A stretch of 32,769 nt of DNA from Paludibacteraceae bacterium (GTDB taxonomy: Bacteria > Bacteroidota > Bacteroidia > Bacteroidales > Paludibacteraceae). The stretch spans positions 1 through 32,769 of the forward strand of contig JAFTHS010000029.1 in assembly GCA_017457295.1 (NCBI GenBank). Reading direction: 5' to 3'. How positions within the stretch are numbered: position 1 is the first letter of the stretch; each line of letters starts with the position of its first letter. The position numbers and the translations under genes were made by a program. The notes beneath the pieces were generated by a model. It made no database searches. It was not told where the DNA came from and was given only the letters and a program-made list of their open reading frames with translations. Of this stretch, positions 828-31,400 are shown one piece after another.

Positions 828-2625
828 AAAATTTATTTGCGCGTTTACGTTCGAGTTCGTCGAGGATAATCTTGCGGATACGCATAAAGTTTGGTGTTAC
901 CTCTACGTATTCATCTTCCTTGATATACTCCAATGCCTCCTCCAGCGAGAAGATTACAGGGGGTGGCAATACCGCCTTGTCATCTGCCGATTTCGAGCGC
1001 ATATTGGTCAGTTTCTTCGACTTCGTTACATTGATAACAATATCGCCCTCTTTGCTATTCTCGCCCACTACTTGACCTGCATACACCTCGTCTTGTGGCG
1101 AAATGAAGAATCGTCCACGGTCTTGCAGTTTATCCAAGGCATAGGCATACGCCGTACCCGACTCCATGGCGATGAGCGAACCGTTGTTGCGCTTCACAAT
1201 CTCGCCCTTGTAGGGTTGGAACTCCAAGAAACGGTGCGCCATAATCGCTTCGCCTGCCGACACGTTCAGCACGTAGGTACGCATACCGATGATACCACGG
1301 CTCGGAATCTCAAACTCGAGTTGTACACGGTCGTTGATCATCTCCATGCGGGTCATCTCGCCCTTGTGGGTGGATACATATTCGATGATCTTGCCCGAGC
1401 ATTCTTCTGGGGTGTTCACCGTGAGTTGCTCCACAGGTTCGCACTTCACGCCGTCAATCTCCTTGATGATGACTTGTGGCTGACCTACCTGCAACTCGTA
1501 TCCCTCGCGGCGCATGGTTTCTACGAGCACACTGAGGTGCAACACACCACGGCCAAAGACATTCCACGAGTTCTCGTCTGTGCCGCGCTCCACGCGAAGG
1601 GCAAGGTTCTTTTCGAGCTCTTTGTCGAGGCGTTCTTGGATATGGCGAGAGGTTACGAACTTACCGTCTTGACCGAAGAATGGCGAGTCGTTGATAGTGA
1701 ATACCATAGACATTGTGGGCTCATCAATGGCGATGGGCTTCAATGCCTCTGGTGTCTCAATGTCGCAAATAGTGTCGCCAATCTCGAAGCCGTCGATACC
1801 GATGAGCGCGCAAATATCGCCCGATTTCATTTCTTCTGTTTTCACATGTCCCATGCCCGAGAACGTGTGCAACTCTTTGATTTTGGTCTTAATCATCGTG
1901 CCGTCTTTCTTGGCAAGCATGACGTTCTGACCATTGTGCAGTGTACCACGATGCACACGTCCCACAGCGATACGACCTACGTATGGGTTGTAGTCGAGAC
2001 TGGTGATGAGCATCTGTGGCGTACCCTCCAACACCTCTGGTTCGGGAATATACTCGATGATGGCATCCATCAATGCGGTCAGGTCTTCAGTTGGCTGCTT
2101 CCAATCGGTGGACATCCAGCCGTTCTTTGCAGAGCCATAGAGCGTTTGGAAATCCAATTGTTCCTCTGTGGCGTCGAGGTTGCACATGAGGTCAAAGACC
2201 TCCTCTTGCACCTCGTCTGGGCGGCAGTTGAGTTTATCCACTTTGTTGATGACTACGATAGGTTTGAGGTTGAGCTCCAACGCCTTTTGCAGCACGAAGC
2301 GCGTTTGTGGCATAGGGCCTTCGAAGGCATCTACGAGCAGCAGCACGCCGTCTGCCATGTTCAGCACGCGCTCCACCTCGCCGCCGAAGTCGGCGTGGCC
2401 CGGAGTGTCAATCACATTGATTTTGTAGCCCTTGTATTCTATCGCTACGTTCTTCGCCAAGATGGTGATACCGCGCTCGCGCTCGAGTTCGTTGTTGTCG
2501 AGGATGAGTTCACCCTTCTGCTCGTTGTCGCGGAAGAGGTTGGCGGTGTACAACATCTTGTCCACGAGCGTTGTTTTGCCGTGGTCTACGTGTGCGATGA
2601 TGGCTATGTTTCTAATGTTCTGCAT
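826..2625 (-). CDS. typA: Ribosome-associated translational GTPase TypA/BipA
   Basis: EF-G-like GTPase that binds ribosomes, involved in 50S assembly and stress or low-temperature growth. The protein has 599 aa, the normal length for the family. The G1 loop AHVDHGKTT is at residues 11-19, followed by DTPGHADF (G3) and NKVDK (G4). The later beta-barrel and EF-G-like domains and the family-specific C-terminal domain are present, for example the SRGIIGMR segment. The start [19 protein letters not shown] matches the conserved N-terminus. A consensus promoter lies about 85 nt upstream at 2709-2740. The next gene downstream on the strand is tig. Antisense open frames as long as 526 codons in this region are shadows of its codon bias. 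Confidence 0.97.
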
Positions 2626-2708
2626 ATTCTATTTTCCGTTATTTTTTCGTAGCGTCCTTGCGAGTGCTCTCGCATGTGCGCATACTACGCACAATATAAA
2701 AAATCGGA

Positions 2709-2740
2709 CAAAGGTACTGCTTTTTTCGCAAATATGCAAG
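2709..2740 (-). promoter_or_regulatory. Bacteroidetes-type promoter for typA
   Basis: On the minus strand TACCTTTG occupies 2709-2716 and CTTG 2737-2740. This fits the -33/-7 consensus TTG-N20-TAnnTTTG. The bases before the -7 box (AAAAAAGCAG) are the same as in the tRNA and rRNA promoters of this window. Predicted leader is about 80 nt. Confidence 0.75.
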
Positions 2741-2756
2741 AAAATAATGCTTTTTG

Positions 2757-2787
2757 TTGCTCGGATGCAATTTTTTTTGTACCTTTG
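2757..2787 (+). promoter_or_regulatory. Bacteroidetes-type promoter for the small T9SS protein
   Basis: TTG (2757-2759), a 20-nt spacer, then TACCTTTG (2780-2787). The ATG at 2827 is 39 nt downstream of the box. It is divergent from the typA promoter. Confidence 0.7.
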
Positions 2788-2826
2788 CCAGCCGAATAAT
2801 GCAAAACATTATAATTGTGTAGAAAC

Positions 2827-3282
2827 ATGAAACGATTCGTATTCTTTTTTGCTCTAGCATGTGTCATGCCAATGATGGCTATGAATTTGCTTGTGGAACA
2901 CCGTTCGGGTGCGGACTTGCTGCAGGATGTGGCTAAAATCGGCAAGTGGATATATGTGGGCGACCACCTGCAGTTGCTTGACAAGTCGGGCAATGTGTTG
3001 GCTACTGAGCCATTGGCTAATATCAAGAAAATCACTTTCTCTATCTCAGGCGAAACGACTGCACCGGAGACTGTGGTGGCAAATACGATTTTGGTCTATC
3101 CCAATCCTGCGCAGGATATATTGATAATTCAGGGCGTTGAGGAGCAACCGCTGCGCGTGTATGACCTGCAGGGACGACTATTGCAGACGGAGAACGGTAC
3201 GCAAATCAGCGTTGGCAACCTTGCAGAAGGCACCTACCTCTTGCAAATCGGCACGCAAGTGGTACGATTTATTAAGAACTAA
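2827..3282 (+). CDS. Small secreted protein with C-terminal T9SS (type A) sorting domain
   Basis: Predicted 151-aa exported protein of unknown function. I chose the ATG at 2827; an upstream in-frame TTG at 2815 would place MCRN before the signal peptide. Residues 1-19 form a signal peptide (MKRFVFFFALACVMPMMA). Residues 25-75 contain a short segment (GDHLQLLDKSGNVLATEPL, then IKKITF) like the linker often seen before sorting domains in Bacteroidales. Residues 88-151 are a type A T9SS C-terminal domain: YPNPAQD at 91-97, VYDLQGRLL at 111-119, LAEGTYLLQI at 132-141, ending in KN. Almost nothing but export and sorting signals is present, so the mature part would be only about 65 aa. It has its own promoter and a terminator just after it, so it is monocistronic. 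The T9SS assignment is firm; the biological role is unknown. Confidence 0.85.
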   Translation: MKRFVFFFALACVMPMMAMNLLVEHRSGADLLQDVAKIGKWIYVGDHLQLLDKSGNVLATEPLANIKKITFSISGETTAPETVVANTILVYPNPAQDILIIQGVEEQPLRVYDLQGRLLQTENGTQISVGNLAEGTYLLQIGTQVVRFIKN

Positions 3283-17504: not shown

Positions 17505-20500
17505 TTATTTTACCAACTTACCCGTGGTGTCGTACCATTGGTTGTTGCGGATGATGAACAACTGACCATTGATGAATACCTTCTCGGTGTCTTTACCCGT
17601 GATGGTGGTGTTGGTGATGCCTGTAGTTTCAGAATTAGGATCGAAGACAGTGATTTCGTAACTGAGTTCTGCTGCTTTGTGAGTCTCTGTTTCTGGATAA
17701 TATGCAGTTACTTCGGTCGTACCATAGCCAATAGCTGTTAGGCTCATAAATTCGCTATCATATTGTAGTATGCCTTGAGGACCTGTGATTTCAAAGGTAG
17801 TAATCACATCTCCATTAGCAGTTTCTGCATACAAGAAAATCTCGTCGTTTAAGTCTAAGATATTGCTTTCTAATTCCCAATATATGATTGTTTCAGCTTT
17901 TTCGACTACAATAGTGATAGTAGCATCGATGGTGTTGTAGAGGTCGGTGTTGGTTGGGGTGAAGCGGATGGCTACTTCGTTGTTGCCCATATTGAGTGAT
18001 TGGGTTGGGTTGACGAATGACCATGTGCCTTTGATATTTGATTCGCCACCATTAAGCATATCGTCTGTCAATGCAGTGCCGTGACCTAAAGGAGCAACAG
18101 TAGGCAATGTGATGATCTCAGGAGTGTGCTTGATAACGGTAACAGTGTAAGAAACCGATGCTGCTTCGTAGTTCTCGTTCTCTGGAGCAGTAGCAGTGAT
18201 TGTAACTGTACCTGCTGCAAGAGCGGTGAGCGTGTTGCCCTCGAGCGATGCAACTCCTTCGGCTGGCTGGATAGCAAAGGAGACTTCGCCTGCAGGTGCT
18301 GTAGCAGAGAGAGTGAGCGTGTTGCCAATGAGCAACTCTTGATCAGCAAAGTCCCATGCGATAGTTTGCAATTGCTTGGTTACTTGGAGAGTAACAGAAT
18401 CACTAACCTCGTTGTAACTTTCTGACTTAGCAGGAGTGAAGACGATACCAAATGTATATTTGCCAACAGCAGGTACTTGGGCTAAGTCAGCAGGCATATT
18501 GGTGATGCTGAATGCACCTTCTACGCTGGCTTCTCCGCCTACGAGCTGTAGTGCTTCGCTATATGTAGCACCATATACTACGTCATTAAGAGTAGGCCAT
18601 GCAGTGACAGTAGGAGTAGCTTTGTGGATAGTGATTGTATGTGCTACTTCTTCAGCAGCATTGTAGTTTTCGTTGCCTGCTTGTGAAGCGGTGATAGTGA
18701 CTTTTCCCGCTTTTACTGCTGTGAGCGTGTTGCCTTCGAGGGTAGCAGCATCGCCTGTGAGAGCGAAGGTAACTTTTCCTGCAAGTGCAGTTGCGCTGAG
18801 AGTGAGAACCTCATCCACAGTCATCTCTGTGGTAGTGAAGTCCCAATTGATGGTTTGGTTAGCTTTGTTGACGGTGATAGTTACTTTGCTATCAAGCGTG
18901 TTGTACCATGCTGTGTTGGTAGGAATGAATTGAACAGCTAACTCGTGTGTACCTGCGTTGAGGACTTGAGTGAGGTCTGCATTCCATTGCCATGTACCTT
19001 CGGTGTCGGTTTCGCCACCATTGAGGGTAGCAGCTTCGAGTGTTGCACCATAGGTGATGGCTTCTACTGTAGGCAAAGAAACGATAGCAGGGGTAGCCTT
19101 AGAGATAATATATTTCTTGGTCAGTGTGGCAGCTTCGTATTTGTTGTCCTGCTCAGCTTTAGCTGTGATGATAACTTCGCCTTCGGTTTTGATAATCAAC
19201 TTATTGCTGTCTACATCAGCCACTTGTGTGTTAGAAGATTTATAAGTAATATTGGTTTTTGCTTCTGCGTCAAAGGTAATATCCGCTGTAGTCAATATCT
19301 CTGCATCTGCATTATTCCAAAGGATGGTTTGGGTGTTGCGACGCACATCAACTGTAACAGGGATGGTTACATTCATTTTGCTTACTGCATCGGAAATAAC
19401 AATGTTATCAGTGATGGTACCTACTTCTGCAGGGGTGATGGTTACTTTTAGGGTGTGTTTGCCAAAGTCACCACAGTCGTTGCCTAATCCTGTTTCAGAT
19501 ATGGAAACGGTGTTGACGTCTTCATTGTGAGCGATGAGCACTTCATCTTTCACGTTTGCGTAATTGATAACGATGTCTTTTGTGATGATGTCACCTACGA
19601 TAGCCGTTTCGTTGATAGAGGAAAGAGATGTCTCAAGATATTGAGCAGGGGTAACGACGATGCCACTGACATAGTGATAACCCTGTCCTCCTGAAGGGCG
19701 TACAAAACGGATGTGTGTTGCTCTGCGGTCGAGTTGAACGGTGAGTGTATTGTATTGGCCTACAGTAGGTTTTATTTCGCTGCCTGCTATATCAGACCAA
19801 TTGTTTCCGCCATCTGTAGATTGTTGCGCCTTGATAGTTCCTGAATAGTAGTTAATCACAAGATTCCAATATTCTCCTTTATGCTGGAAAGTTAGTTTGT
19901 CAGGAACACCTGCAGCGGTGTTAATAGCAATAGCGTTTTTGATGATTTCTCCTGTGTTCATCTCGAAGAAAGAGATCTCAGCAGGTTGGTCTACCAATAG
20001 AATATCTTCACAACCAGCGGAAGGTTGGCGCACTTTAACTGGAATGACTACCGATGCAGCTTCGTAGAACTCATCACCTGGTACATTTACGGTGAGAGTT
20101 GTTTCGCCTTCGCCAACAATAGTGAGAACATTACCATCAGAAACGGAAACTACATTGTTGTTTGCGCTCGCGTATGTGAGGCGAGCAGTACGCTCATCCG
20201 AATCAACTTTCTCTCCTGTTTCTGCATTGACAGTGAGTTGCACTTTTGCGCTCAATGTGATAGGTTCGCTTCCCGTTTTAAGACGGGTAAGGTTACCACC
20301 TTCCCATACAATAGATTGGATTTGCTTTGCGGTAACGGTAAATTCTTTAGAATCCGGGGTAGCAGCGTTCCATTCATTATTATCACCCGCTTGGGTAGCA
20401 GTAATGGTAGCAGTACCTGCTTTGATGGCTTGGAATGCAGTGCCGTTGTTAATGATTTTAATAATCGTTTCGTCACTGGATGTGTATGTGATAGGTAAAC

Positions 20501-21404
20501 CACTAGTGGCTCTTGCTGCATTCTCAACAATCTTATTAAGTGGTAATTTGGTATCAGCGTCTGCAATGTTCCAAATAATAGATTGGGCTTTCTTCACACC
20601 AACACCAGATACTGAGATAGTAGCAGAACTGGTACCATCTGAGATGGTGATTGTACCTGAGTGTTCACCTTCGGCGGTAGGCACAAAATAGATATTGATG
20701 TCATATAAGTTGATATCTCCGAGGGTTTCACCACCTGCATTGGTGCCTGTTTTTCCATTTGTAGACGCACATGCATTTTTACCTACGGCAAAAGTTTGGC
20801 CTTGTGTGTTGTCTGCAGAACCAATGCGGAAAGCAGGGTTGCCGCTAGTAATTTTGATATCACCATTGGTAAGGAAAGAGCGAAGTTTTACGGTTTGAAC
20901 CTTGGATGTACCTCCTATCGTTACATTTTCAAATATTTTGCTTTCGCTAGTTTTTCCAAAACTGCCAGCAGCAATAAGAATATGTTGTTTCAAAGGGATT
21001 TTGATATCTTTGTAAAATCTATCCAAACTCCCGCCGTCGTGTTGGAATTTCAAATGTGTAATATTCTTGCTGACAGCAGTTGTAATAGACACATAACTAT
21101 TTTGTTGTGTTCCTGATCCGCTTTCTATTCGATGAATTTTTGTGTAGTTTGAACCATCAGATGATTCTGAAATATCAAGTTTATATATAGGGTGTCCTAT
21201 GAACCATCCTGTTTTTTTCCATTGAAAACTAAGACTTTCTGTGGTTGGAGCGAAAACAGAGAATGTTTTATCTGTATTTTTGTATTCTTCTGTTGCATCA
21301 TACAGCGAATACCAAGTTCCGTTGTTGTACGTTTGTGCGGTTAGGTTTGTACTTGCGAGGAAGAGGGTTGCAAGCAAGAATAAATTAGTAAAAATCTTTT
21401 TCAT
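17505..21404 (-). CDS. Large secreted Ig-like/MBG repeat protein with T9SS-like C-terminus
   Basis: Predicted 1299-aa exported surface or secreted protein, function unknown. Residues 1-23 are a signal peptide (MKKIFTNLFLLATLFLASTNLTAQ). Residues about 25-140 and 460-580 resemble discoidin-like sandwiches (SLSFQWKKTGW; LTFQHKGEYWNLVINYYSG). Residues about 142-268 and 590-690 resemble choice-of-anchor-D/ASH segments (YFVPTAEGEHSGTITISDG). Six Big-like segments are recognisable by I-W followed by a YEAA or YNAA-type motif. Three MBG-like units are interleaved, beginning near residues 769, 928 and 1093, each with TP...LPT or WPT, then YG or HG, then NGGE or VGGE. The last about 50 residues hold KVFINGQLFIIRNNQWYD and end in TTGKLVK, a short box common at the end of Bacteroidales surface proteins and a likely T9SS signal. 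No catalytic motif is seen; an adhesin or structural role is plausible. It has its own promoter and terminator. Confidence 0.85.
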   Translation of the reverse strand: MKKIFTNLFLLATLFLASTNLTAQTYNNGTWYSLYDATEEYKNTDKTFSVFAPTTESLSFQWKKTGWFIGHPIYKLDISESSDGSNYTKIHRIESGSGTQQNSYVSITTAVSKNITHLKFQHDGGSLDRFYKDIKIPLKQHILIAAGSFGKTSESKIFENVTIGGTSKVQTVKLRSFLTNGDIKITSGNPAFRIGSADNTQGQTFAVGKNACASTNGKTGTNAGGETLGDINLYDINIYFVPTAEGEHSGTITISDGTSSATISVSGVGVKKAQSIIWNIADADTKLPLNKIVENAARATSGLPITYTSSDETIIKIINNGTAFQAIKAGTATITATQAGDNNEWNAATPDSKEFTVTAKQIQSIVWEGGNLTRLKTGSEPITLSAKVQLTVNAETGEKVDSDERTARLTYASANNNVVSVSDGNVLTIVGEGETTLTVNVPGDEFYEAASVVIPVKVRQPSAGCEDILLVDQPAEISFFEMNTGEIIKNAIAINTAAGVPDKLTFQHKGEYWNLVINYYSGTIKAQQSTDGGNNWSDIAGSEIKPTVGQYNTLTVQLDRRATHIRFVRPSGGQGYHYVSGIVVTPAQYLETSLSSINETAIVGDIITKDIVINYANVKDEVLIAHNEDVNTVSISETGLGNDCGDFGKHTLKVTITPAEVGTITDNIVISDAVSKMNVTIPVTVDVRRNTQTILWNNADAEILTTADITFDAEAKTNITYKSSNTQVADVDSNKLIIKTEGEVIITAKAEQDNKYEAATLTKKYIISKATPAIVSLPTVEAITYGATLEAATLNGGETDTEGTWQWNADLTQVLNAGTHELAVQFIPTNTAWYNTLDSKVTITVNKANQTINWDFTTTEMTVDEVLTLSATALAGKVTFALTGDAATLEGNTLTAVKAGKVTITASQAGNENYNAAEEVAHTITIHKATPTVTAWPTLNDVVYGATYSEALQLVGGEASVEGAFSITNMPADLAQVPAVGKYTFGIVFTPAKSESYNEVSDSVTLQVTKQLQTIAWDFADQELLIGNTLTLSATAPAGEVSFAIQPAEGVASLEGNTLTALAAGTVTITATAPENENYEAASVSYTVTVIKHTPEIITLPTVAPLGHGTALTDDMLNGGESNIKGTWSFVNPTQSLNMGNNEVAIRFTPTNTDLYNTIDATITIVVEKAETIIYWELESNILDLNDEIFLYAETANGDVITTFEITGPQGILQYDSEFMSLTAIGYGTTEVTAYYPETETHKAAELSYEITVFDPNSETTGITNTTITGKDTEKVFINGQLFIIRNNQWYDTTGKLVK

Positions 21405-22016: not shown

Positions 22017-25000
22017 CTACTGTGCAACTACCAGTTTGCCCGAAGCAATACGGCGCTTCTCGTTCTCGAAGAAACAGTATAAGTATGTGCGGTTGGCCTC
22101 AGGCAAGGTGAAGACATTCGTGGTGGTCAGCACGTCAAGCAATCGGTCGGAACCATCTGCATTAGTAACCACGACAGCATCGTTTTGGTTGGTCTCGGTG
22201 AGCTTGCTGTAGTATAGCATGTGTCCGTTAGGCGTGTAAACCGCAACCGACACGTTCTTGCGCAGCGTAGCGAAGATGAGATCCAACGATCCAGGCACGT
22301 GCTTAACCAGTACATCGTTGGCCATAGGCGTCTGCGCGGAGTTGATAGTGGATTGCAAGAAATGGATGGTGTAGATGAGCTCGGTGCCATCGTGTGCGGT
22401 GACATAGATATAATATGGTTCTCCGTCCACGAACATAGAGTAGTCCACCGTGGCATTGGAGTCTTGCGGAACCGCCTCGATAGTAGGAACGATGTCCTGG
22501 ATGTAATAGGTGTATTCGAAGACCTCTTCGCTGAAGTCACGTACCAACACGCTGTCGAGGAAGATGCCCTGGAGGAACGCATTGCTGCTGCGTAAGATGT
22601 CCTGCTCGATAGTGTAAACGCGTGAGTGCTTGCCGTCGGCTGCGTCCACCTGGATGGTGAAGTTCTGACCCGCAGGCGTGATGGTGACCTTTGCCTGCTC
22701 GTCCTCTGCTATCGCCTGTATGTCCTCGATGGTGGCGAACTCAGTGGAGTCGGTTCCCACAGGATAAGTGATGAGATAGTAGGTGGAGTCAGCGTGGAAA
22801 TCAGTCAGTTGTTCGCCCTTGATAGTGATGGTCTTGAGGCGGCAGTCGCTGTTGAGCGCCACGTATATACGCACGTCGTACTCGGAAGAGAACATTGGGT
22901 CTGGAGCGGTGACAGAGAAACGTAGGGTGGTTTGCTCTTGGCCATTGACCTCGTTGCGGAAGGTGTCGATTTGTACGGTTTGTCCCTCCTTGCCCAGTTC
23001 GTAGGTGAAGTTAGGCAACGTGGTGGTGCCATAAGGCAGGGTGACGTCGTAGAGGAAGGAGTCGGGTTGGAAGCCCTCGATGAGGACCTCGTCCTGATAA
23101 ATACCCTGAAGGTAGGAGTATGGCGACATCTGGCGTTGGAAGATGACGGTGTAGGTGGCGCGGGCCGTAGTATCCTCAGCGAGCACGGTGATGACCGTGG
23201 TGTCAGCGTGCGCGATAGTGACGGTCTGCATCGCCTCGCCCTTCTCAACCAAAACGGAAGGAAGCGCCTCTTCCTCGAGTAGGCTGTGGATGTAGGTGTA
23301 TTGCTCTGGAGCGAAGCCCTGGATAGGTTGACCATTGATGTAGATGTTGCTGAGGTCGGTGTTGGTGGAGAGGACTTGGCTGAAAAGGAAATAAAGCGTA
23401 TAGGTGCGTACTTGCCCGTTCTGCGCAGTGACATCAAGCGTTTGCTTCCAACCGATAGTGGTGCCTGCGATATCGTATGGCAGCGTGGTGTGGTTGACAG
23501 TTTGGAAGGCATCGCCCTCTTGCCAAGCCAGCGTAGGCGCAAGCGAATCACCAGGCGCAAGCGTGATGTAGTAGTCGTTGATATGCGGATCGAATCCAGC
23601 GAGCGAGTCGGACTGAATGTAGATCATCTGCAAGGTGTCGACGTCGGATTGCAGGATGGTGTAGGACACGGTGTAGGTGTTCTTGCTGCCCGACATGGCA
23701 GTGACTTGCAACTGCGTAACGCGTTGGTTGTCAGTGTCGATAGCGTTGCTTGGAAGTACCGTTTGCCATTGGTCGGCTACGTCCCAAGTGAGCTCAGGGA
23801 TGTAGGTGGTACCCACAGGCAGCGTGTAAGCATAGTAGAACGAGTCGGGGCGGAAACCTTCGATGGTGTCGCCGTCTGCGTAGATGGCGAGGAGGGTGTC
23901 TGCCTGCGAAGGGATGAAATTGAACGCCAAGAGGTACTGCTGCTTGGTGCCGTCCTCTGCGGTGACATAGATGGTGTGCTGCAGGTCGCCCGTGATGGAG
24001 TCAAGTACAGTTTGCATGCTCTCTTGTGGCTCGGCATAGACGTCTGGCATGGTGGTCTGACCTACAGGCAGATCGATGAAGTAGTTGTATTTGTCAGGCG
24101 CGAAGTTGTCGAGTGTGTCGCCGTCGAGATAAATCATCTTGAGGTGCGCATTGCGCGACATTGGCGCAAGGAACTGCAATGTGTAGGTGTTCTTAGTGAT
24201 GCCATCAGGCGCAGTGACCGTGATGAGAGTAGTCCATCCATTGTTCTTAATATCAACGGTTTGTCCCTCTTCTTGGAGCTTAGCAGAAACCTCTGGGAGC
24301 GTCTTTGTGCCCGAAAGCAGGTTGATGACATAGCGCTGCTGCATAGGTGAGAACTCGAGGGTAGGGTTGATGTCGGTCAAGAAATGGCTGAAGTCAATAC
24401 CGTCGAGGTAGATCTGCTGGAGTGTAGCGTTGTCGGAAGGCAATTGGCGAAGCACATCGATGCTATAGTCGTTGGTGGTGACACCATCTTGAGCTGTTAC
24501 GCGCAAGATATGTACTCCGTCTTCAACGTGGTGCGTAACCGTTTGGAAACGGTCGTCGGAAGCCCATGTGAATGAGATGTCCTCGGTGAACGTAGTTGCT
24601 GAATAGTAGAAACGCTTGCTGTTGAATCGTTGGAGAGGTTCGCCATTGACCGCAATACCCGTAAGCAAAGCGTTGTGGCTTGGCTCGGCCTGGATGAGCA
24701 CCTCGTAGAGAGCTTGTGCGAGACCGTCCTCGGAAAGCACGGTGATGTAGGTGGGCTCGCCAAGTTTACCATATTCGATGGTAGCGTGCTGGCGAGGAGC
24801 TCCGAGTTGGTAGCTCAGACTAGGGATAGTAGGTTCGAGCTGCTTGTATTCGCCCACTGGCAAAGTGACGATGTACTTCAGACTGTCAGGACGGAAGTCT
24901 GGGATGAGTGTGCCGTCAATCAAAATACCATTGAGAGTAGGAGTACTGCTGAGATTTGGCACTACAGTTAGTGTGTAAGGTGTACCTTCGGTGCCGTCTT

Positions 25001-28000
25001 CAGCGGTGACAACGTAGGTGTAGGTGGTGCTTGTGGTAGCTTGACGAGGCGAGAGGCGTTTAGTTGTATAGGTGTTAGCAGTAGCCTCGCCATTGAATGA
25101 TTGGGTAACCGAAAGCAGTTTGGCCTTGCTGTTGGCTACTGCATGGATATGAACGGATTCGTCGGTGCGATAAGTATAGTCATGGACTTGCTTGTCGAAC
25201 TCGTTGTATGGCTCACCATTGATATAGAACGCCTTGAGAGTAGCATCGCTGGAGAGCGCAACAGGATAGGTGATGCGGTAAGCATGCTGCTCAGTACCAA
25301 AGACTTGCCATTCCATATAATGTGGCGACTGTACGAAGATGACACTGTCGGATTCCGCCATACGCTTGAATGCAACAGTGGTAGGTTGCTCGCGGGTATA
25401 GTCGTAGGTGTTAGGGTTGAAGTCCTGCCAAGCCATGTTGTTGATTTCTAACTCTGCAAGTTGGCCTGTGGTGGTGACGGTAGGCTGCTGCAAGTGGATT
25501 GTGTAGGTGCCTACGTTGCCGTTTTCCGCTGTGACAGTAATCACGCCATTGTTGAGGTGGGCAGTTTGGCCGTCCATCATCTTGACAAACGTGATGGCTG
25601 GCATGCGGTCGGCGGTGATGGTGTATTCCGTTTGAGCAGTATCGAATTCGATAGTAGCTCCCTCTACTGTGATGCTAGATAGTTGCGTGTTGTCGGAAAG
25701 GTCAGTGATGAAACGTATGGTGTAGGTCTTTACATCTCCTTTCTCAGGTTTCACGTTGATGGTGAAAGTGGAGTCTGCATATGAAGTGGTAATGGTTTGT
25801 AAACCGCCTCCTGCAATAGGCTGTACGTCAGGCAATTGCTTGATGTGGGAAGGAAGGTGGCAGATATATTCGGTGGTGTTCGGGTCGAAATTAGCAATAG
25901 TGTCGCCATTGAGCAAGAGCGCACCTAAGGTGTTGCGAGTGCTCCAAGGACGACGGATTTGTAAACGATATTTTGTAGAATCTCCATTTTCAGCATAGTT
26001 CATGAAGTAAGCGGAACGAACTTGATAAGTAGCATTTAGATTGTTGTTCTCTTGCCAAGTATCAAACTTTTGTGCTTGGTCACTAACTTCGCCTTCGAAT
26101 ACGATATTTGGGAATGTAGTATCTTCACTATCTGTTAGAGTAGCCGTAAATGTGTTGCCAGCTTTAGTAGCTTGGATTCCGTTGACAGTGATGCCTTTAA
26201 GTTGACTGTTGTAGGAGAAACGGATATAGTCTATATACATTTCTGCTACTGTTGGGCTCGAAAATGGGTTTCCGGTGGTGCCATCTGTTGTGTAGTACGA
26301 GCATAATGTGATGTTCAAAAATGAAGGAGCACCAGCTGCATTATTTGCTTCAGAAAGATCAAGTGCTACTTCTTTGTAGTCAGAACTAGTTTGTGAATCT
26401 TTCCACTCCAAAACCTTGATACCATTCATGCCCGTGAGGCTATATTGGATGAGGCTGTTTTTGTCTACTTTACTGTTGTAGTACCTAATATTCATTTCAT
26501 CAGGCGTATTGTGGAAAGATATACCTTCGAAGATGCTGAATGAAGAGGAACCTGAAACGGCCCATTGACCAGATACTGTACCTAATGTGATAAATCCAGG
26601 AATGTTTCCACCGCCTGGGGTACTATATTGTGTCTTAAGATATACTGCATCGTTACCAGACTTCTGAACCATTTCGTCAGGGTCGAATGTTCCGAAACCA
26701 GAGTGTGTACCCAACGTATCTGCAATAGTATTCCAACCAGTAGGTTTAACAGCATCGGTGTAGGTTGCACAGTTGGTCCATTCTGTAAACTCGGTGTTAG
26801 GTACTTGGTCATTAACGTAGTAGTACCACACATCGTAGATATTGGTATGATCTTGATAAGTGACTTCGGCTTGCCAATGCTTGCTGTCCTGGGTTAGTAC
26901 ATTCACTTGTGCCCCCTTGGCTGCAGTGTAGCGGATAATAGGCGACTTGGTGACATTCACAATATATGAGAAGCGGTTTTTATCAAATCCAGAAATGGAA
27001 ACTTCATTCACATTGATATCCGTTAATACTGCAGGATCTTGCGTTTCTAATTCTGGTATGATGGTATATACCATATCTTCCTCGTTCGGACGGTTGGATT
27101 TGACAGTGATGATAGTTGGATTCTTCACTCCACCAGGTTGAACCCAAACGGTCTGTTCGGGGAATAGCTTGGTGTATTCCACTGTTAGAGACTGACTGCC
27201 GTATGGCATTTCTACAGTGTGTATAGTATCCTTTGGGTTGAGGTTTTTGTCAATCTCTTTGATGTAGATGCTTTCTAATTTATTTGTAGTTTTTGCGAAA
27301 CTTTCTTTGAAATGCAAATTGTATGTGCGTTGATCGCCATTCTCGGCAGTGACAATGATTTGGCTAGTTTGACCCAATGGGCGAGAAATGTATTGTATCG
27401 TTTGCTCAGGTTCAAGTGCTGCATACAACACCAATGGAGCAACAGTATCACCATATGGCATGCTGATGGTATAGTCCGTAGAATCAGGGTGATAGTTGAT
27501 GAACACAATATCGTGGTCGAGCATAATATGGTCAAGCGCCAAGTTGCTAGATTTGACTACAGGGAAGTGGATGGTGTAATCCGCAGTAGCGGTGCTATCA
27601 GGTGATAGTACATGAATCTTGGTGGTGCCATTGACAGCACTATGATAAGTGGTGATGACCTGATCTGGGTGCATGCCTATAGGTTGTACGCAAGGTACTA
27701 TCTTGGTGCGCCAAGGCAGGGTGTCAGTGTATGCAAAGACGTCACTTTGGAAGTCCTTGATACTTTTGCCATCGATGAGAATATCTGACAACAAAGCATT
27801 AGACGACTTGCTGCGAGTGTATGTGACGGTGTAGATGTTGGTACGGCCACTTTGTGCAGTGACAATCACTTGTTGCACGGTGTCGCTGACGTTGTGCAAA
27901 GCAATATCTTGGCCCTTCTGTCCAATAGCATTTAGACCAGGCAATTCATACCCTTCTGGCACGTCCAGATGGTAGTCGTAGGTGGTTGGTTGGAAAGGAA

Positions 28001-31000
28001 GGTCCAAACCCTCTACTTGCAAGTCAACAAGATTAGCATCATCAAGAATCTCTCGTTGGAAGCGCATTGTGTAGCGTGCAGTGTCGCCACTTTGTGCTGT
28101 AACGAGAAGACTATAGGTGTTAGCATCTTGCGAGCCTGCGAACACCACTTGCTCAGGATATTGCTTTTGATAAGTGATACTTGGCATCTCTTCAAAAGCA
28201 GCAAGAGGTATGATGTATTCGTAGGTATTGGGCGAGAATGATGCAAGACTTGCTTCGTTCAACAGAATGTCACGCAACGTGCAGTCGGTATTGGTTGCTA
28301 CGGAGATTGTAATTTGGTATTGCACCTTGTCTTCGCCTGCTACCACATAGATGGTATACGTATCTTCATTGCGGAATATTGTTACCATTTGTGCAGAGTC
28401 TGCATCATAGGTTATAGATGGGGCATTGTTCTCACAGTCAATAGAATATGCAAATTTCTTAGGGTCAAATTCTGCTAAAGGATTGCCATCAATATAGATT
28501 TGTTCTAGCAAGGCATCATTTGTCTCTACGTTTACAAAATTGATGGTGTAGGTGTTGGCTGCAGAGGATTCTGGTTTCACCATAATCTTGGCTTGTCCTG
28601 TAGAATAAGGAGTGGTGATAGTGATTTGTTGTCCATCTTCTTTGTCCACTGTGATTGCAGGACATACTGTATCTTCCAAAGAGATGGTATAGTCAAACAC
28701 CTTCGCATCAAAGCCCTCCAAACTGTCGCCGTTCAAGTAGATCATCTTTAGATAAGCACTCTCGGAACGTTGAAGAATGAATGTGATTTTGTACGTTTGA
28801 CTTTTTCCACTTTCTGCAGTCACTTTGATGGTTTGTACATTATCTATGCATACGTTCAGCACTTTTTGCGACTCCTCGGCTTTCTGGTATGTCACTTTAG
28901 GTAAGGTGGTTACGCCTACAGGCAATGAATCTACGTACTCCAATACATTAGGATCAAAACCCTCCAATGGCTGTCCATCAAGGTAGATCATGCTAAGTGT
29001 AGTGTTGTCAGAAGTGGCTACTGAGAAGTGCAAAATATATGTTTGACTAGCACCCGTTTGAGGGCGAACTGTGATTTTATAATCGCCATTTATTCCACCT
29101 GAACGAACAGTAACTGTCTGATATTCATCTGACTGGTCATAGGTGATAACTGGCAATTCAGTAGTTCCCTTTGGTAATGGGCAATTATATTCCAACACGT
29201 TAGGGGCAAAACCTTCCAATGGTTGTCCGTCCAAATAAATCATTTTCAGTGTAGCATCATTAGATGTCTTCACCGAGAATGCAATCTGATAGATAGTGCT
29301 ACTTCCGTTTTGTGCAGTAACGGTGATACGAGTGGTACCATTGATACCACCTTTGAGTATATTTACTGTTTGATACTCATCGCCTCTATCCCACGTAATC
29401 TCAGGCAGTTGAGTGGTGCCGATTGGCAAAGTGTAGGTGTACGAGGTGGTGTTAGATGCAAAATCTGCTAAGGGTTCGCCACCTATGTAAATCATATTGA
29501 GCGTAGAGATTTCTGATTTCGCAGTAGAAACGGCAATCTTATATACTGTTTGGTCTACACCATTACCAGCAACAACGGTTACTCTTGTCTCGCCATCCAA
29601 TCCACCTTCTTGTATGGTTACAGTTTGTGTGCTTTCGCCCTTTTCGTAGGTGATTTTTGGTAACTCGGTCGTACCTAATGGTAGATTTACGTAGTAGGTT
29701 GTTTGTTCTGGATCGAAGTTGGTTATCCAGTTCTCTCCCATTTGCAAGCTTTTTAATTTCGAGTAGGAAGATGCTTCCAACTTGAAGTTGAGTTTGTAAA
29801 TCTTTGGCGTTGGGTTGCCTGGTGTGGAAACGCTGATTTGATACACACCACCATCGATTGTAGATGGTTTAGTATGTGTAATTGTTTGTTCTCCAGCAGG
29901 ATATGCTGATACTGCCTCTACCGTTGGCATGGTGGTTGTGGTGGTTGGTAGCGACACACGATAAGTCGTTTGGTTTGGACTATATCCTGTTACGGAATTT
30001 CCATTTATCTTGATGTCTTTCAGTGTGTTATCTGCGAGCAGAGCCACTTTGAATCTCACCGTATACGTACTAGTGGTCTTTTGGTCGGCTGCGGTTACTT
30101 GAATCTTTGCCTCACCGCTAAGGCTGCTTGCTTGTGTAATCTTGATAACTTGCTCATCCTCTTGTGCTTCTGCTGCGATTACTGGCGTACTAGTAGTGCC
30201 GTAAGGCAGCTCTGCTGTATAGCTATATACATCAGGTCGGAAGTTGCTGAGAGGAGTACTATTAACAAAGATATTGGCGAGCTTGGCATTCTTACTTGCT
30301 TCACGAACGAACTTAATCTTGTATGTAGTTGTGCTTTTACCGTCTTCCGACTTTACGGTGATAACGGTTGGCGCGCCATCAAGGGCTCCGTTGGTAATGC
30401 TAATCTCGCTGCCTGATAACTCGCGACCAGAGAATGCTACCGTTTCGCCTTTGGCATTGGTAATAGAACCAACGCCTCGAACAGCTTTGATTTCTGGAAT
30501 TGCGGTGGCGCTACGTCCCAATGAGTATGTTTGTTCTTCAGTTGTGTTTGGATCAAAGCCTTTCCACTCTTTGCCACCGACATACAACTTCTGAATCTTT
30601 GATGAATAAATCAGCTCTACATCATCCACATACAATGAGTTACCCTTATATAATCCATCGTTTGCGCGATAGTTAGGGTAGTTACTTGCAGAGAAGATGA
30701 TGTTCATCATCGTTGGTACATCGTTGCTGAAATAATAAATCGGCACACGAATATTGGTCCATTCGCCATATTCTTTTTTCTCGCGCCACATACCTTCGGC
30801 AATTTGGTTGGCTTTTTGGTCTGTACCACATTCATTCGCGTCTAAGGCCAAACGGATATCGCTCTCTTCATTGGTTTGAGAGATACTTGTACAACTACCA
30901 TTCTTGCCTTTATATTTACTTGACTTCGCTGTACCAGACCATGCATAGTAGAGTAGGTAGAAGTCTTCTTTGTCCACGTTTGCGCCAGTACGTTTAATCC

Positions 31001-31400
31001 ATACGGACATAGAGTCGGGACGATATTTGAAGTTAATACCGCCGCTAGTTCCTGCTGTTGCTTTGTTAATTTCTGTAATACTTGGAAGGTGTGTCCATGG
31101 CTTACCTAATGAGAAGTAGCCAGGTGACACTTCGGTGATACCCATGGCACCTACTTCGGTATCTTGCACCATCATGGAGTAGCTACCTGTGTGACCTGCC
31201 TCACGGTGTGCCAAATTAAATTTGAAACCTACTTGCGTTACATTGCTCGCATACCAATCTTTAAGTTGAATTTGGTTGTCATATTTCTCGCCGCTCCAGT
31301 CCTCAAAACTTGGGTTAGGAACCTGCTGAGCAGATACTGATATAGTGCCAAATACGGTTAAAACAATCAATGCAACGAATGTTGAGTAAAATTTCTTCAT
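22017..31400 (-). CDS. Giant secreted protein: two PCMD-like modules and about 30 cadherin-like repeats
   Basis: Predicted 3127-aa exported protein, uninterrupted, function unknown. Residues 1-24 are a signal peptide (MKKFYSTFVALIVLTVFGTISVSAQ). Residues about 26-265 form a PCMD-like (putative carbohydrate metabolism) jelly roll, with PNPSFEDWSG at the start and GNSLYVDDVELIY at the end. Residues about 267-1520 hold about 15 repeats of 75-90 aa; the clearest reads IYLDGQPLEGFDPNVLEY followed by LP-G-T-LP-V/I-Y, a QTV strand and ITVTA..G....Y.I.F. They resemble the cadherin-like beta-sandwich family (PF12733). A second PCMD-like module spans about 1532-1725 (VPNTEFTEWTN to EMYIDYIRFSYN), then about 15 more repeats to about 3015. 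The last about 110 residues (VSVAVYTPNGHMLYYSKL to RRIASGKLVVAQ) look like a T9SS-type C-terminal domain. No enzyme motif is seen. A glycan-binding stalk or adhesin is the most likely role, by inference. Confidence 0.88.
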   Translation of the reverse strand: MKKFYSTFVALIVLTVFGTISVSAQQVPNPSFEDWSGEKYDNQIQLKDWYASNVTQVGFKFNLAHREAGHTGSYSMMVQDTEVGAMGITEVSPGYFSLGKPWTHLPSITEINKATAGTSGGINFKYRPDSMSVWIKRTGANVDKEDFYLLYYAWSGTAKSSKYKGKNGSCTSISQTNEESDIRLALDANECGTDQKANQIAEGMWREKKEYGEWTNIRVPIYYFSNDVPTMMNIIFSASNYPNYRANDGLYKGNSLYVDDVELIYSSKIQKLYVGGKEWKGFDPNTTEEQTYSLGRSATAIPEIKAVRGVGSITNAKGETVAFSGRELSGSEISITNGALDGAPTVITVKSEDGKSTTTYKIKFVREASKNAKLANIFVNSTPLSNFRPDVYSYTAELPYGTTSTPVIAAEAQEDEQVIKITQASSLSGEAKIQVTAADQKTTSTYTVRFKVALLADNTLKDIKINGNSVTGYSPNQTTYRVSLPTTTTTMPTVEAVSAYPAGEQTITHTKPSTIDGGVYQISVSTPGNPTPKIYKLNFKLEASSYSKLKSLQMGENWITNFDPEQTTYYVNLPLGTTELPKITYEKGESTQTVTIQEGGLDGETRVTVVAGNGVDQTVYKIAVSTAKSEISTLNMIYIGGEPLADFASNTTSYTYTLPIGTTQLPEITWDRGDEYQTVNILKGGINGTTRITVTAQNGSSTIYQIAFSVKTSNDATLKMIYLDGQPLEGFAPNVLEYNCPLPKGTTELPVITYDQSDEYQTVTVRSGGINGDYKITVRPQTGASQTYILHFSVATSDNTTLSMIYLDGQPLEGFDPNVLEYVDSLPVGVTTLPKVTYQKAEESQKVLNVCIDNVQTIKVTAESGKSQTYKITFILQRSESAYLKMIYLNGDSLEGFDAKVFDYTISLEDTVCPAITVDKEDGQQITITTPYSTGQAKIMVKPESSAANTYTINFVNVETNDALLEQIYIDGNPLAEFDPKKFAYSIDCENNAPSITYDADSAQMVTIFRNEDTYTIYVVAGEDKVQYQITISVATNTDCTLRDILLNEASLASFSPNTYEYIIPLAAFEEMPSITYQKQYPEQVVFAGSQDANTYSLLVTAQSGDTARYTMRFQREILDDANLVDLQVEGLDLPFQPTTYDYHLDVPEGYELPGLNAIGQKGQDIALHNVSDTVQQVIVTAQSGRTNIYTVTYTRSKSSNALLSDILIDGKSIKDFQSDVFAYTDTLPWRTKIVPCVQPIGMHPDQVITTYHSAVNGTTKIHVLSPDSTATADYTIHFPVVKSSNLALDHIMLDHDIVFINYHPDSTDYTISMPYGDTVAPLVLYAALEPEQTIQYISRPLGQTSQIIVTAENGDQRTYNLHFKESFAKTTNKLESIYIKEIDKNLNPKDTIHTVEMPYGSQSLTVEYTKLFPEQTVWVQPGGVKNPTIITVKSNRPNEEDMVYTIIPELETQDPAVLTDINVNEVSISGFDKNRFSYIVNVTKSPIIRYTAAKGAQVNVLTQDSKHWQAEVTYQDHTNIYDVWYYYVNDQVPNTEFTEWTNCATYTDAVKPTGWNTIADTLGTHSGFGTFDPDEMVQKSGNDAVYLKTQYSTPGGGNIPGFITLGTVSGQWAVSGSSSFSIFEGISFHNTPDEMNIRYYNSKVDKNSLIQYSLTGMNGIKVLEWKDSQTSSDYKEVALDLSEANNAAGAPSFLNITLCSYYTTDGTTGNPFSSPTVAEMYIDYIRFSYNSQLKGITVNGIQATKAGNTFTATLTDSEDTTFPNIVFEGEVSDQAQKFDTWQENNNLNATYQVRSAYFMNYAENGDSTKYRLQIRRPWSTRNTLGALLLNGDTIANFDPNTTEYICHLPSHIKQLPDVQPIAGGGLQTITTSYADSTFTINVKPEKGDVKTYTIRFITDLSDNTQLSSITVEGATIEFDTAQTEYTITADRMPAITFVKMMDGQTAHLNNGVITVTAENGNVGTYTIHLQQPTVTTTGQLAELEINNMAWQDFNPNTYDYTREQPTTVAFKRMAESDSVIFVQSPHYMEWQVFGTEQHAYRITYPVALSSDATLKAFYINGEPYNEFDKQVHDYTYRTDESVHIHAVANSKAKLLSVTQSFNGEATANTYTTKRLSPRQATTSTTYTYVVTAEDGTEGTPYTLTVVPNLSSTPTLNGILIDGTLIPDFRPDSLKYIVTLPVGEYKQLEPTIPSLSYQLGAPRQHATIEYGKLGEPTYITVLSEDGLAQALYEVLIQAEPSHNALLTGIAVNGEPLQRFNSKRFYYSATTFTEDISFTWASDDRFQTVTHHVEDGVHILRVTAQDGVTTNDYSIDVLRQLPSDNATLQQIYLDGIDFSHFLTDINPTLEFSPMQQRYVINLLSGTKTLPEVSAKLQEEGQTVDIKNNGWTTLITVTAPDGITKNTYTLQFLAPMSRNAHLKMIYLDGDTLDNFAPDKYNYFIDLPVGQTTMPDVYAEPQESMQTVLDSITGDLQHTIYVTAEDGTKQQYLLAFNFIPSQADTLLAIYADGDTIEGFRPDSFYYAYTLPVGTTYIPELTWDVADQWQTVLPSNAIDTDNQRVTQLQVTAMSGSKNTYTVSYTILQSDVDTLQMIYIQSDSLAGFDPHINDYYITLAPGDSLAPTLAWQEGDAFQTVNHTTLPYDIAGTTIGWKQTLDVTAQNGQVRTYTLYFLFSQVLSTNTDLSNIYINGQPIQGFAPEQYTYIHSLLEEEALPSVLVEKGEAMQTVTIAHADTTVITVLAEDTTARATYTVIFQRQMSPYSYLQGIYQDEVLIEGFQPDSFLYDVTLPYGTTTLPNFTYELGKEGQTVQIDTFRNEVNGQEQTTLRFSVTAPDPMFSSEYDVRIYVALNSDCRLKTITIKGEQLTDFHADSTYYLITYPVGTDSTEFATIEDIQAIAEDEQAKVTITPAGQNFTIQVDAADGKHSRVYTIEQDILRSSNAFLQGIFLDSVLVRDFSEEVFEYTYYIQDIVPTIEAVPQDSNATVDYSMFVDGEPYYIYVTAHDGTELIYTIHFLQSTINSAQTPMANDVLVKHVPGSLDLIFATLRKNVSVAVYTPNGHMLYYSKLTETNQNDAVVVTNADGSDRLLDVLTTTNVFTLPEANRTYLYCFFENEKRRIASGKLVVAQ

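What the first reader, a model, noticed from the sequence alone, without database searches (positions are those of the whole stretch)
22017..31400. Giant 3127-aa surface protein built as a doubled array: PCMD + about 15 repeats, twice
By eye the protein divides into signal peptide, PCMD-like module, about 15 cadherin-like repeats, a second PCMD-like module, about 15 more repeats, and a T9SS-like tail. The equal halves suggest a whole-module duplication followed by divergence, or a two-armed binding stalk. PCMD modules usually occur once near a terminus; an internal second copy at the midpoint is unusual. The protein has no enzyme motif, so it could be a very long glycan-binding adhesin.
Basis: partly seen in the sequence, partly recalled or inferred. 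Interest (0 to 1): 0.7.

Follow-up and report, generated by a model that had tools for sequence, protein, structure and literature searches.

The report
Surface protein with mirrored equal arms
A family of giant gut-bacterial surface proteins carries two strings of beads that nearly always hold the same number of beads, and in the clearest cases both strings grew by the same amount at mirror-image places, which suggests that the chain folds back and its two arms lie side by side.

Summary
ORF 22017-31400 (minus strand, 3127 aa) reads: signal peptide, PCMD1, 15 cadherin-like repeats, a second PCMD-type module, 15 repeats, C-tail. The middle module escapes Pfam but matches PCMD1 profile to profile (97.6%, E 4e-12). 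Pairing of repeat n with n+15 is rejected (p=0.94). What appears instead is more interesting. PCMD1 occurs in 173 of 178 genomes of the genus and 15 of 33 genera of the family. In 77 of 83 complete relatives the two arms have equal repeat counts, from 6+6 to 29+29 (r=0.98, also on tree contrasts). Enlarged arms grew at mirror positions: A5-A16 and B9-B20 (24+24, period 3), A10-A16 and B14-B20 (29+29, period 2), with duplicates of similar age. Over 55 15+15 proteins, repeat A_i co-diverges with B_(16-i). Best explanation: the chain folds back at the middle module and the arms pair antiparallel, domain by domain. Function beyond a surface stalk/adhesin is inferred.

The parts
22017..31400 (-). 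whole 3127-aa two-armed surface protein
   Evidence: single open frame; orthologs
31326..31400 (-). N-terminal signal peptide (residues 1-25)
   Evidence: read by eye from the sequence; no signal-peptide program run
30600..31325 (-). PCMD1 module (residues 26-267), the most conserved part of the protein
   Evidence: PF13201 33.1 bits; mean pairwise identity 65% over 20 orthologs
26823..30599 (-). arm A: 15 cadherin-like repeats A1-A15 (residues 268-1526)
   Evidence: iterated HMM; PF12733
28779..29504 (-). A5-A7, the segment that is quadrupled in the 24+24 relatives
26205..26822 (-). middle PCMD-type module PCMD2 (residues 1527-1732), proposed turn/tip
   Evidence: profile-profile match to PCMD1, 97.6%, E 4e-12; not found by Pfam alone
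25494..27542 (-). A13-PCMD2-B3, a block that diverges or is shared together (tip cassette)
   Evidence: per-segment identities and residual correlations
22359..26204 (-). arm B: 15 cadherin-like repeats B1-B15 (residues 1733-3014)
   Evidence: iterated HMM
23388..24146 (-). B9-B11, the mirror of A5-A7, quadrupled in the same 24+24 relatives
22017..22358 (-). C-terminal tail (residues 3015-3127 and stop), T9SS sorting-domain-like
   Evidence: TIGR04183 is the top NCBIfam hit but under cut-off (12.6 bits, E 0.1; 2 of 20 orthologs match at E<=1, best E 0.004); genome encodes SprA (2658 bits) and 12 over-cut-off TIGR04183 matches

Best explanation
It is a cell-surface stalk made of one polypeptide that folds back on itself. 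The chain runs from a conserved PCMD module (PCMD1) at the base, outward through arm A, turns at a second PCMD-type module (PCMD2) at the tip, and returns through arm B to a C-terminal T9SS-type tail at the base. The two arms lie antiparallel, so that repeat A_i sits beside B_(n+1-i). Because the ends must meet, or the paired domains must keep register, an insertion or loss in one arm is mostly kept only if the other arm changes by the same amount, at or near the mirror place. The variable PCMD2 with about three flanking repeats on either side would be the exposed, exchangeable binding tip; PCMD1 would be the conserved foot. SHOWN here: equal arm counts, mirror-placed growth of similar age in two lineages, co-divergence in the mirror register, a variable middle module, a conserved first module. 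INFERRED: that this reflects physical side-by-side pairing within one molecule; surface anchoring by T9SS; glycan binding by the PCMD modules.
For: Equal counts in 77 of 83 complete proteins (6+6 x1, 7+7 x1, 10+10 x6, 11+11 x4, 15+15 x56, 19+19 x6, 24+24 x2, 29+29 x1), Pearson 0.98, arm residue-length ratio 1.004 +- 0.047 (n=82); phylogenetic contrasts r=0.98, n=82; parsimony needs 15 changes of arm A count and 11 of arm B. Mirror growth: L024 (24+24) against its sister L027 (15+15) has A5-A7 x4 and B9-B11 x4, and A5-7 mirrors B9-11 exactly; its sister L069 the same. In L068 (29+29) lag-2 identities of arm A (i=9-15.49 .86 .91 .89 .88 .62 .42) against mirrored arm B (.49 .70 .99 .87 .90 .59 .45). 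Adjacent duplicate units have similar nucleotide identity in the two arms (L069 A .72 .75 .71, B .71 .77 .71; L068 A .63 .81 .84 .66, B .65 .86 .85 .70, or .77 .90 .71 in the other phase). Within-protein similarity matrices: mirror r .78/.76/.69 for L024/L069/L068 against parallel .40/.42/.12. Co-divergence over 55 proteins: mirror 0.279 against parallel -0.122, p<0.0001 by 20000 shuffles; best mirror offset 0 in 179 of 200 half-samples and -1 in the other 21, and 0.23 after thinning to 28 sequences; the reflection scan peaks at sum 31. Profile similarity along the antidiagonal p=0.005. Conserved base and variable tip: PCMD1 65%, PCMD2 31% mean identity.
Against: No structure was predicted or solved (tool off). 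Six of 83 proteins are unequal by my counts: L026 14/15, L113 and L114 14/15, L076 14/12, L082 24/19, L080 13/11; the last is 11/11 once a 210-aa insert holding a GEVED domain is set aside, the others are real exceptions, L082 by about 350 residues. Arm A of L134 (cut at a contig end, not in the 83) also has 14. The within-protein mirror test gives p<0.05 in only 10 of the 28 proteins given to it (of 77 equal ones), and p>=0.05 in all of the 11+11 (4), 7+7 and 6+6 ones, 3 of 4 of the 10+10 ones and 8 of 10 of the 15+15 ones. In L068, B20-B22 (0.57) has no counterpart in A8-A10 (0.42), so the mirror is not perfect at that edge. Losses in the 10+10 clade match the mirror only roughly. The neighbouring reflection sums 32 and 30 score almost as high (0.199, 0.193 against 0.206), and over A1-A11 alone offset +1 (0.21) slightly exceeds 0 (0.19). 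In the profile test some short parallel offsets scored as high (offset -10, n=5: 14.5 against 8.1), so that test is weak. All evidence is evolutionary and fits an antiparallel dimer equally well.
Confidence: 0.66

Rival explanations
1. Antiparallel homodimer: two extended rods, in cis or between neighbouring cells, lie head to tail so that arm A of one pairs with arm B of the other and the PCMD2 modules meet in the middle. This gives the same register A_i to B_(n+1-i) without a fold-back; in trans it would be a homophilic cell-cell contact with PCMD2 as recognition module.
For: Same predictions for equal counts, mirror growth and co-divergence. A variable middle module could be a recognition site.
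Against: Nothing here separates it from the hairpin directly. The very conserved PCMD1 and the variable PCMD2 fit base and tip of a hairpin more simply.
Confidence: 0.2
2. Open arch: both ends sit at the cell surface (PCMD1 and the C-tail) and the arms rise to a common apex without touching. Equal length is needed only so that both feet reach; repeats at the same height share selection.
For: Explains equal counts, and co-divergence by height.
Against: Does not readily explain why growth falls at mirrored positions with the same unit size of 2 or 3 repeats.
Confidence: 0.09
3. Whole-half duplication: one PCMD+15-repeat gene copied head to tail, repeat n pairing with n+15.
For: The two PCMD modules are homologous and the halves are equal in number.
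Against: No n/n+15 pairing (p=0.94); the parallel register is negative in co-divergence (-0.12); repeats match their own position in other species; sizes from 6+6 to 29+29 would each need a fresh duplication, yet in L024 the middle module and the flanking positions match the 15+15 relatives position by position.
Confidence: 0.02
4. Neutral or mutational coupling: sequence exchange between the arms, or assembly errors, makes the counts alike without any structural need.
For: MAG contigs can collapse or expand repeats; five ORFs in the loci fetched are split (L041, L055, L130, L141, L144).
Against: In L024 the copied A repeats are most similar to other A repeats and the copied B repeats to other B repeats, so no sign of copying between arms. 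Duplicate units differ by 10-37% in nucleotides, which makes assembly collapse unlikely (inference). The classes 10+10, 11+11, 15+15, 19+19 and 24+24 recur in several genomes; 6+6, 7+7 and 29+29 were each seen once.
Confidence: 0.03

Closest known systems
SMC/MukB/Rad50 proteins (antiparallel coiled-coil arms folded at a hinge)
   Same: Head part, arm, hinge, arm, head part, with the two strands of the arm antiparallel (title of Melby 1998 seen in the reference list of PMC5526789) and arm lengths in discrete classes (summary, highlights and matching passages of PMC5344682 seen). That the two strands must therefore match in length is my inference.
   Different: Intracellular ATPases with coiled coils; here the arms are chains of cadherin-like beta-sandwich domains of a predicted surface protein. 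No sequence relation was tested or is claimed.
BT2081 / PF13201 PCMD proteins of Bacteroidetes
   Same: PCMD1 passes the Pfam PCMD cut-off. BT2081 joins an Ig-like domain to a jelly-roll domain with a putative carbohydrate-binding pocket (abstract and passages of PMC2954218 seen). That BT2081 founded the PCMD family is recalled; the passages do not name PF13201.
   Different: BT2081 has two domains and is reported as a likely monomer; here two PCMD-type modules alternate with long arrays. A PDB sequence search with the PCMD1 profile found nothing up to E 1.
Long repetitive stalk adhesins of Ig-like domains, such as the ice-binding adhesin MpAFP (abstract start seen in the listing)
   Same: Very long surface protein, most of it tandem Ig-like repeats.
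   Different: MpAFP's large repeat region is about 120 tandem copies of an identical repeat (same listing); no equal, mirrored second array is mentioned in what I saw.
Giant cadherins Fat and Dachsous (listing only; self-bending is recalled, not read)
   Same: Very long cadherin-repeat rods that pair between molecules.
   Different: Animal proteins, two partners with unequal repeat numbers (34 and 27, abstract start of PMC11497213); no internal mirror mentioned.

Membership tests
Pfam PF13201 PCMD | score above the gathering cut-off, module 1 | tested here: met
   33.1 bits against 28
Pfam PF13201 PCMD | score above the gathering cut-off, module 2 | tested here: not met
   no hit for residues 1527-1735; homologous by profile comparison only, 97.6%, E 4e-12
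Pfam PF12733 Cadherin-like beta sandwich | score above the gathering cut-off | tested here: met
   69.5 bits against 24.2 for the whole protein, 5 stretches; the other repeats are joined to these by the self-HMM
T9SS cargo (type A sorting domain, TIGR04183) | C-terminal sorting domain above cut-off | tested here: not met
   12.6 bits against 23, E 0.1 in the window protein; 2 of 20 orthologs match at E<=1, best 0.004
T9SS cargo (type A sorting domain, TIGR04183) | genome encodes a T9SS | tested here: met
   SprA TIGR04189 2658 bits; 12 over-cut-off TIGR04183 matches in the genome. Other T9SS genes were not searched.
Two-armed hairpin (SMC-like in principle, not in descent) | arms of equal length across relatives | tested here: met
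   77 of 83 equal counts
Two-armed hairpin (SMC-like in principle, not in descent) | mirror-register coupling of the arms | tested here: met
   within single proteins only 10 of 28
Two-armed hairpin (SMC-like in principle, not in descent) | physical antiparallel contact within one molecule | not testable with these tools
   structure prediction switched off
Glycan-binding adhesin | binds a glycan or host surface | not testable with these tools
   no ligand test possible; the putative pocket of BT2081 is taken from passages of PMC2954218

The most novel reading that the evidence does not exclude
A class of extracellular double rod: one chain of up to 58 Ig-like domains zips up domain by domain into an antiparallel pair, the paired blocks duplicate together at mirror positions, and arm length is held to a few discrete sizes (6-7, 10-11, 15, 19, 24, 29 repeats per arm, steps of about 4-5), as if whole superhelical turns were selected, with a swappable PCMD tip. 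Growth by units of 3 (+9) and of 2 (+14) reaches this same ladder, so the final length rather than the duplicated unit may be what is selected.
Probability: 0.5. Interest if true: 0.92.

Novelty: new variant of a known kind. Interest (0 to 1): 0.84.

Why it matters
Long repeat proteins on bacterial surfaces are usually read as extended strings whose repeat number drifts (recalled). Here the count is tied between two arms over a fivefold size range and 11 to 15 changes by parsimony, and sequence alone gives a contact-map-like ridge along the antidiagonal. If right, it shows how a fold-back rod of globular domains is built and kept in register by evolution, offers a natural series of rods of 6 to 29 paired domains for structural and mechanical study, and explains a protein whose first module is present in 173 of 178 genomes of a large genus. 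The same test (equal arms, mirror growth, mirror co-divergence) could be run on other giant repeat proteins.

Tried and rejected
Repeat n with n+15: rejected. First count of 19+20 for L052/L057: corrected to 19+19 when position-specific HMMs placed B1. L080 13/11: the extra 210 aa hold a GEVED domain. Conserved operon: none found; neighbours differ between loci. PDB relatives by sequence: none up to E 1 for the whole protein or the PCMD1 profile. NCBIfam for the whole protein and modules: nothing over cut-off. In the order sample, matches outside the family are weak or lie in ORFs of about 900 aa, and the eight outside loci looked at (L060-L067, short stretches, some ORFs cut) show no double array. 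Could the shorter PCMD1 ORFs in the genome lists be single-array proteins? I fetched 20 of them: 15 run into a contig end, 3 are split frames (two of these give 15+15 when their pieces are counted apart), 1 stops 58 bases before a contig end, and 1 (L135) is another paralog, PCMD1 + one repeat + about 980 aa of something else; none is a complete single-array version. The nine paper searches showed no description of equal or mirror-coupled arms in such proteins, judged from listings only (open-access PMC only).

Limits of the sample: 95 loci were counted; the last 60 were chosen, not drawn at random (20 for unusual length or genus; 20 of which 11 from other genera and the rest long, typical or beside a short paralog; 20 near the top of the genus list), so class frequencies are not population frequencies. 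Kept although cut: L092 (tail short), L088b (tail cut by my fetch), L083 (start of PCMD1 cut). L057 was entered by hand. Undetected repeats were inferred from uncovered stretches of 60 aa or more. The co-divergence test used the 55 with 15+15 and a full tail.

Full report
WHAT IS THERE. The ORF at 22017-31400 on the minus strand encodes 3127 aa. An iterated HMM started from one repeat finds 30 repeats, 15 at residues 268-1526 and 15 at 1733-3014, around a 206-residue middle module. Pfam recognises the first module as PCMD (33.1 bits, residues 32-264) and the repeats as cadherin-like PF12733 (69.5 bits). The middle module has no PCMD hit in the window protein, but profiles of 20 orthologs of both modules match at 97.6% probability, E 4e-12. 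The window is a whole contig of its genome (32769 bases). The one named relative found by a scan of genome contigs is a Paludibacteraceae MAG from water buffalo cecum (L003, 62% identity in the best segment of the middle region).

HOW WIDESPREAD. The middle region was found in 34 of 61 genomes searched, all 34 among the 37 of the same genus. With the PCMD1 profile, 173 of 178 genomes of the genus match (66 of 68 of the good ones), and 15 of 33 genera of the family (216 of 358 genomes). These counts are of PCMD1 and include shorter paralogs. In a sample of 295 genomes of the order, the strong matches outside the family (E 1e-30 or better, 3 of them) lie in ORFs of 893-905 aa and the rest are weak; the eight outside loci examined show no double array in the stretches held. 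The genome encodes SprA and a set of T9SS-tailed proteins; the tail of this protein resembles the T9SS type A sorting domain but stays under its cut-off.

EQUAL ARMS. I counted repeats in 95 loci with one HMM and one rule. Of 83 complete proteins 77 have equal arms: 6+6, 7+7, 10+10 (6), 11+11 (4), 15+15 (56), 19+19 (6), 24+24 (2), 29+29 (1). Unequal: L026, L113, L114 (14/15), L076 (14/12), L082 (24/19), L080 (13/11, of which the excess is an inserted stretch with a GEVED domain). Counts correlate at 0.98, and at 0.98 as phylogenetic contrasts on a tree of the N-terminal part. Parsimony on that tree needs 15 changes for arm A and 11 for arm B. The 24+24 protein L024 is nested beside the 15+15 protein L027 in trees of both ends of the protein. 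The 60 later loci were chosen for length and genus, not for equality; 20 further short ORFs proved to be cut, split or another paralog.

MIRROR GROWTH. In L024, comparison with L027 shows that A5-A6-A7 became four copies and B9-B10-B11 became four copies; its sister L069 has the same pattern. In a 15+15 frame A5-A7 lies opposite B9-B11 only if A_i faces B_(16-i). In the 29+29 protein L068, elsewhere on the tree, both arms carry a period-2 block, A10-A16 and B14-B20, again mirrors, and the profile of lag-2 identities is mirrored too, apart from an extra weak pair B20-B22. Nucleotide identities between neighbouring units are similar in the two arms, so the arms grew at about the same time. Copied A repeats resemble A repeats and copied B repeats B repeats, so there is no sign that one arm was copied from the other. 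A matrix test on 28 chosen proteins gives mirror p<0.05 in 10 and parallel p<0.05 in 2 (L024 and L069, where mirror is higher); L024/L069 and L077-L079 are sister groups, not independent. The 11+11, 7+7 and 6+6 proteins show nothing in this test, nor do 3 of 4 10+10 and 8 of 10 15+15 ones, and the losses in the 10+10 clade follow the mirror only roughly.

CO-DIVERGENCE. For 55 complete 15+15 proteins I computed a distance matrix for each repeat, removed the part explained by the rest of the protein, and correlated the residuals. Arm A against arm B shows a ridge along the antidiagonal: mean 0.279 (p<0.0001, 20000 shuffles) against -0.122 for the parallel register. The best mirror offset is 0 in 179 of 200 half-samples and -1 in 21; thinning to 28 sequences leaves 0.23; over A1-A11 alone offset +1 (0.21) is slightly above 0 (0.19). 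Scanning reflection centres over the 30 repeats, the sum 31 is best (0.206), with 32 (0.199), 30 (0.193) and 33 (0.156) close, 29 and 34 at 0.08 and 0.07, and the others about zero or below. Linkage decaying from the middle cannot give this, since A7 co-diverges with B9 (0.44) but not with the nearer B1-B5 (-0.26 to -0.03). Not every mirror pair shows it: A5-B11 (-0.05), A3-B13 (0.01) and A9-B7 (0.03) are flat. Shuffles do not model relatedness of the sequences, so the p-value is only a guide; the peak at the predicted register is the stronger point. Profile similarity between positions also leans to the antidiagonal (p=0.005) and not to n/n+15 (p=0.94), though a few short parallel offsets scored as high.

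TIP AND BASE. PCMD1 is the most conserved part (65% mean identity) and its aligned length stays within 240-245 residues; PCMD2 is among the least conserved (31%) and varies from 196 to 229 (20 orthologs). WIN and L042 are 57% identical overall but fall to 27% at PCMD2, with A13-A15 and B1-B3 dropping on both sides (0.35-0.45 and 0.32-0.47); L030 and L031 show the reverse, a tip more alike than most of the rest. This reads as an exchangeable tip of about three repeats on either side of PCMD2. The tail co-diverges mildly with A1-A3 (0.20-0.21) and B13-B15 (0.21-0.42), as expected if both ends share the base, but also with A10 (0.26) and B11 (0.27).

MECHANISM. The simplest structure that requires equal counts, mirror growth and mirror co-divergence is an antiparallel pair of arms. 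Folding back within one chain at PCMD2 puts the variable module at the tip and the conserved PCMD1 next to the anchored C-tail. An antiparallel dimer of straight rods predicts the same register and is not excluded. BT2081, which I recall as the founding PCMD structure, has a jelly-roll domain with a putative sugar pocket (abstract and passages of PMC2954218), so a glycan-binding tip and foot are reasonable guesses, untested. The closest principle in print that I found is the SMC arm, two strands folded at a hinge with discrete allowed lengths (passages of PMC5344682 and PMC5526789); here the building block is an Ig-like domain and the setting is the cell surface. Nine paper searches did not turn up this arrangement in a surface protein, as far as their listings show; most subscription papers were not searchable.

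VERDICT.

Noticed in passing
L068:1-1149, L075:559-1653, L105:15049-16149 (minus), L106:5960-7141 (minus): Short paralogs (365-394 aa as seen; the L068 one is cut by my fetch) made of a signal peptide, PCMD1 and repeat A1 lie directly upstream of the giant gene on the same strand; a fifth pair is seen in L142, and other short PCMD1 ORFs (about 358-481 aa) are in the genus list.
   Followed up: partly
L135 (G556:C22): Another paralog: PCMD1 and one repeat followed by about 980 aa without detected repeats (1352 aa), in a genome that also has a 14+15 protein (L113).
   Followed up: no
window 25494-27542: The tip block A13-PCMD2-B3 diverges, or is shared, as a unit between species, as if exchanged by recombination.
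   Followed up: partly
L068, L069, L024, L077, L081, L107, L088: Arm lengths fall on a ladder of about 4-5 repeats (6-7, 10-11, 15, 19, 24, 29 per arm), although growth used units of 2 or 3; reminiscent of the discrete SMC arm lengths. Too few independent lineages for a firm claim; L040 has 20 in arm B with arm A cut.
   Followed up: no
L082 (24/19) and L076 (14/12): The two most unequal proteins after setting L080's insert aside; they may be transitional, mis-assembled or released from the constraint.
   Followed up: no
window 17505-21404 (minus): Neighbouring 1299-aa protein with weak Big_2 similarity (19.2 bits, under its cut-off) and a tail that looks T9SS-like by eye; similar ORFs lie near the giant gene in a few other loci (cluster c10).
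   Followed up: no
window 2815-3282 (plus): Small ORF (155 aa) with a T9SS type A sorting domain above cut-off (40.4 bits), in a part of the window that otherwise holds housekeeping genes (BipA, PriA, topoisomerase, FloA, RecJ, LepA).
   Followed up: no
L053 and L054 (both G035): Two contigs of one genome carry N-terminal parts of the giant gene that are identical over the compared region, probably strain duplication in the MAG.
   Followed up: no
L041, L055, L130, L141, L144: The giant gene is split into two ORFs in these assemblies, either a frameshift or stop in the genome or an assembly error.
   Followed up: no
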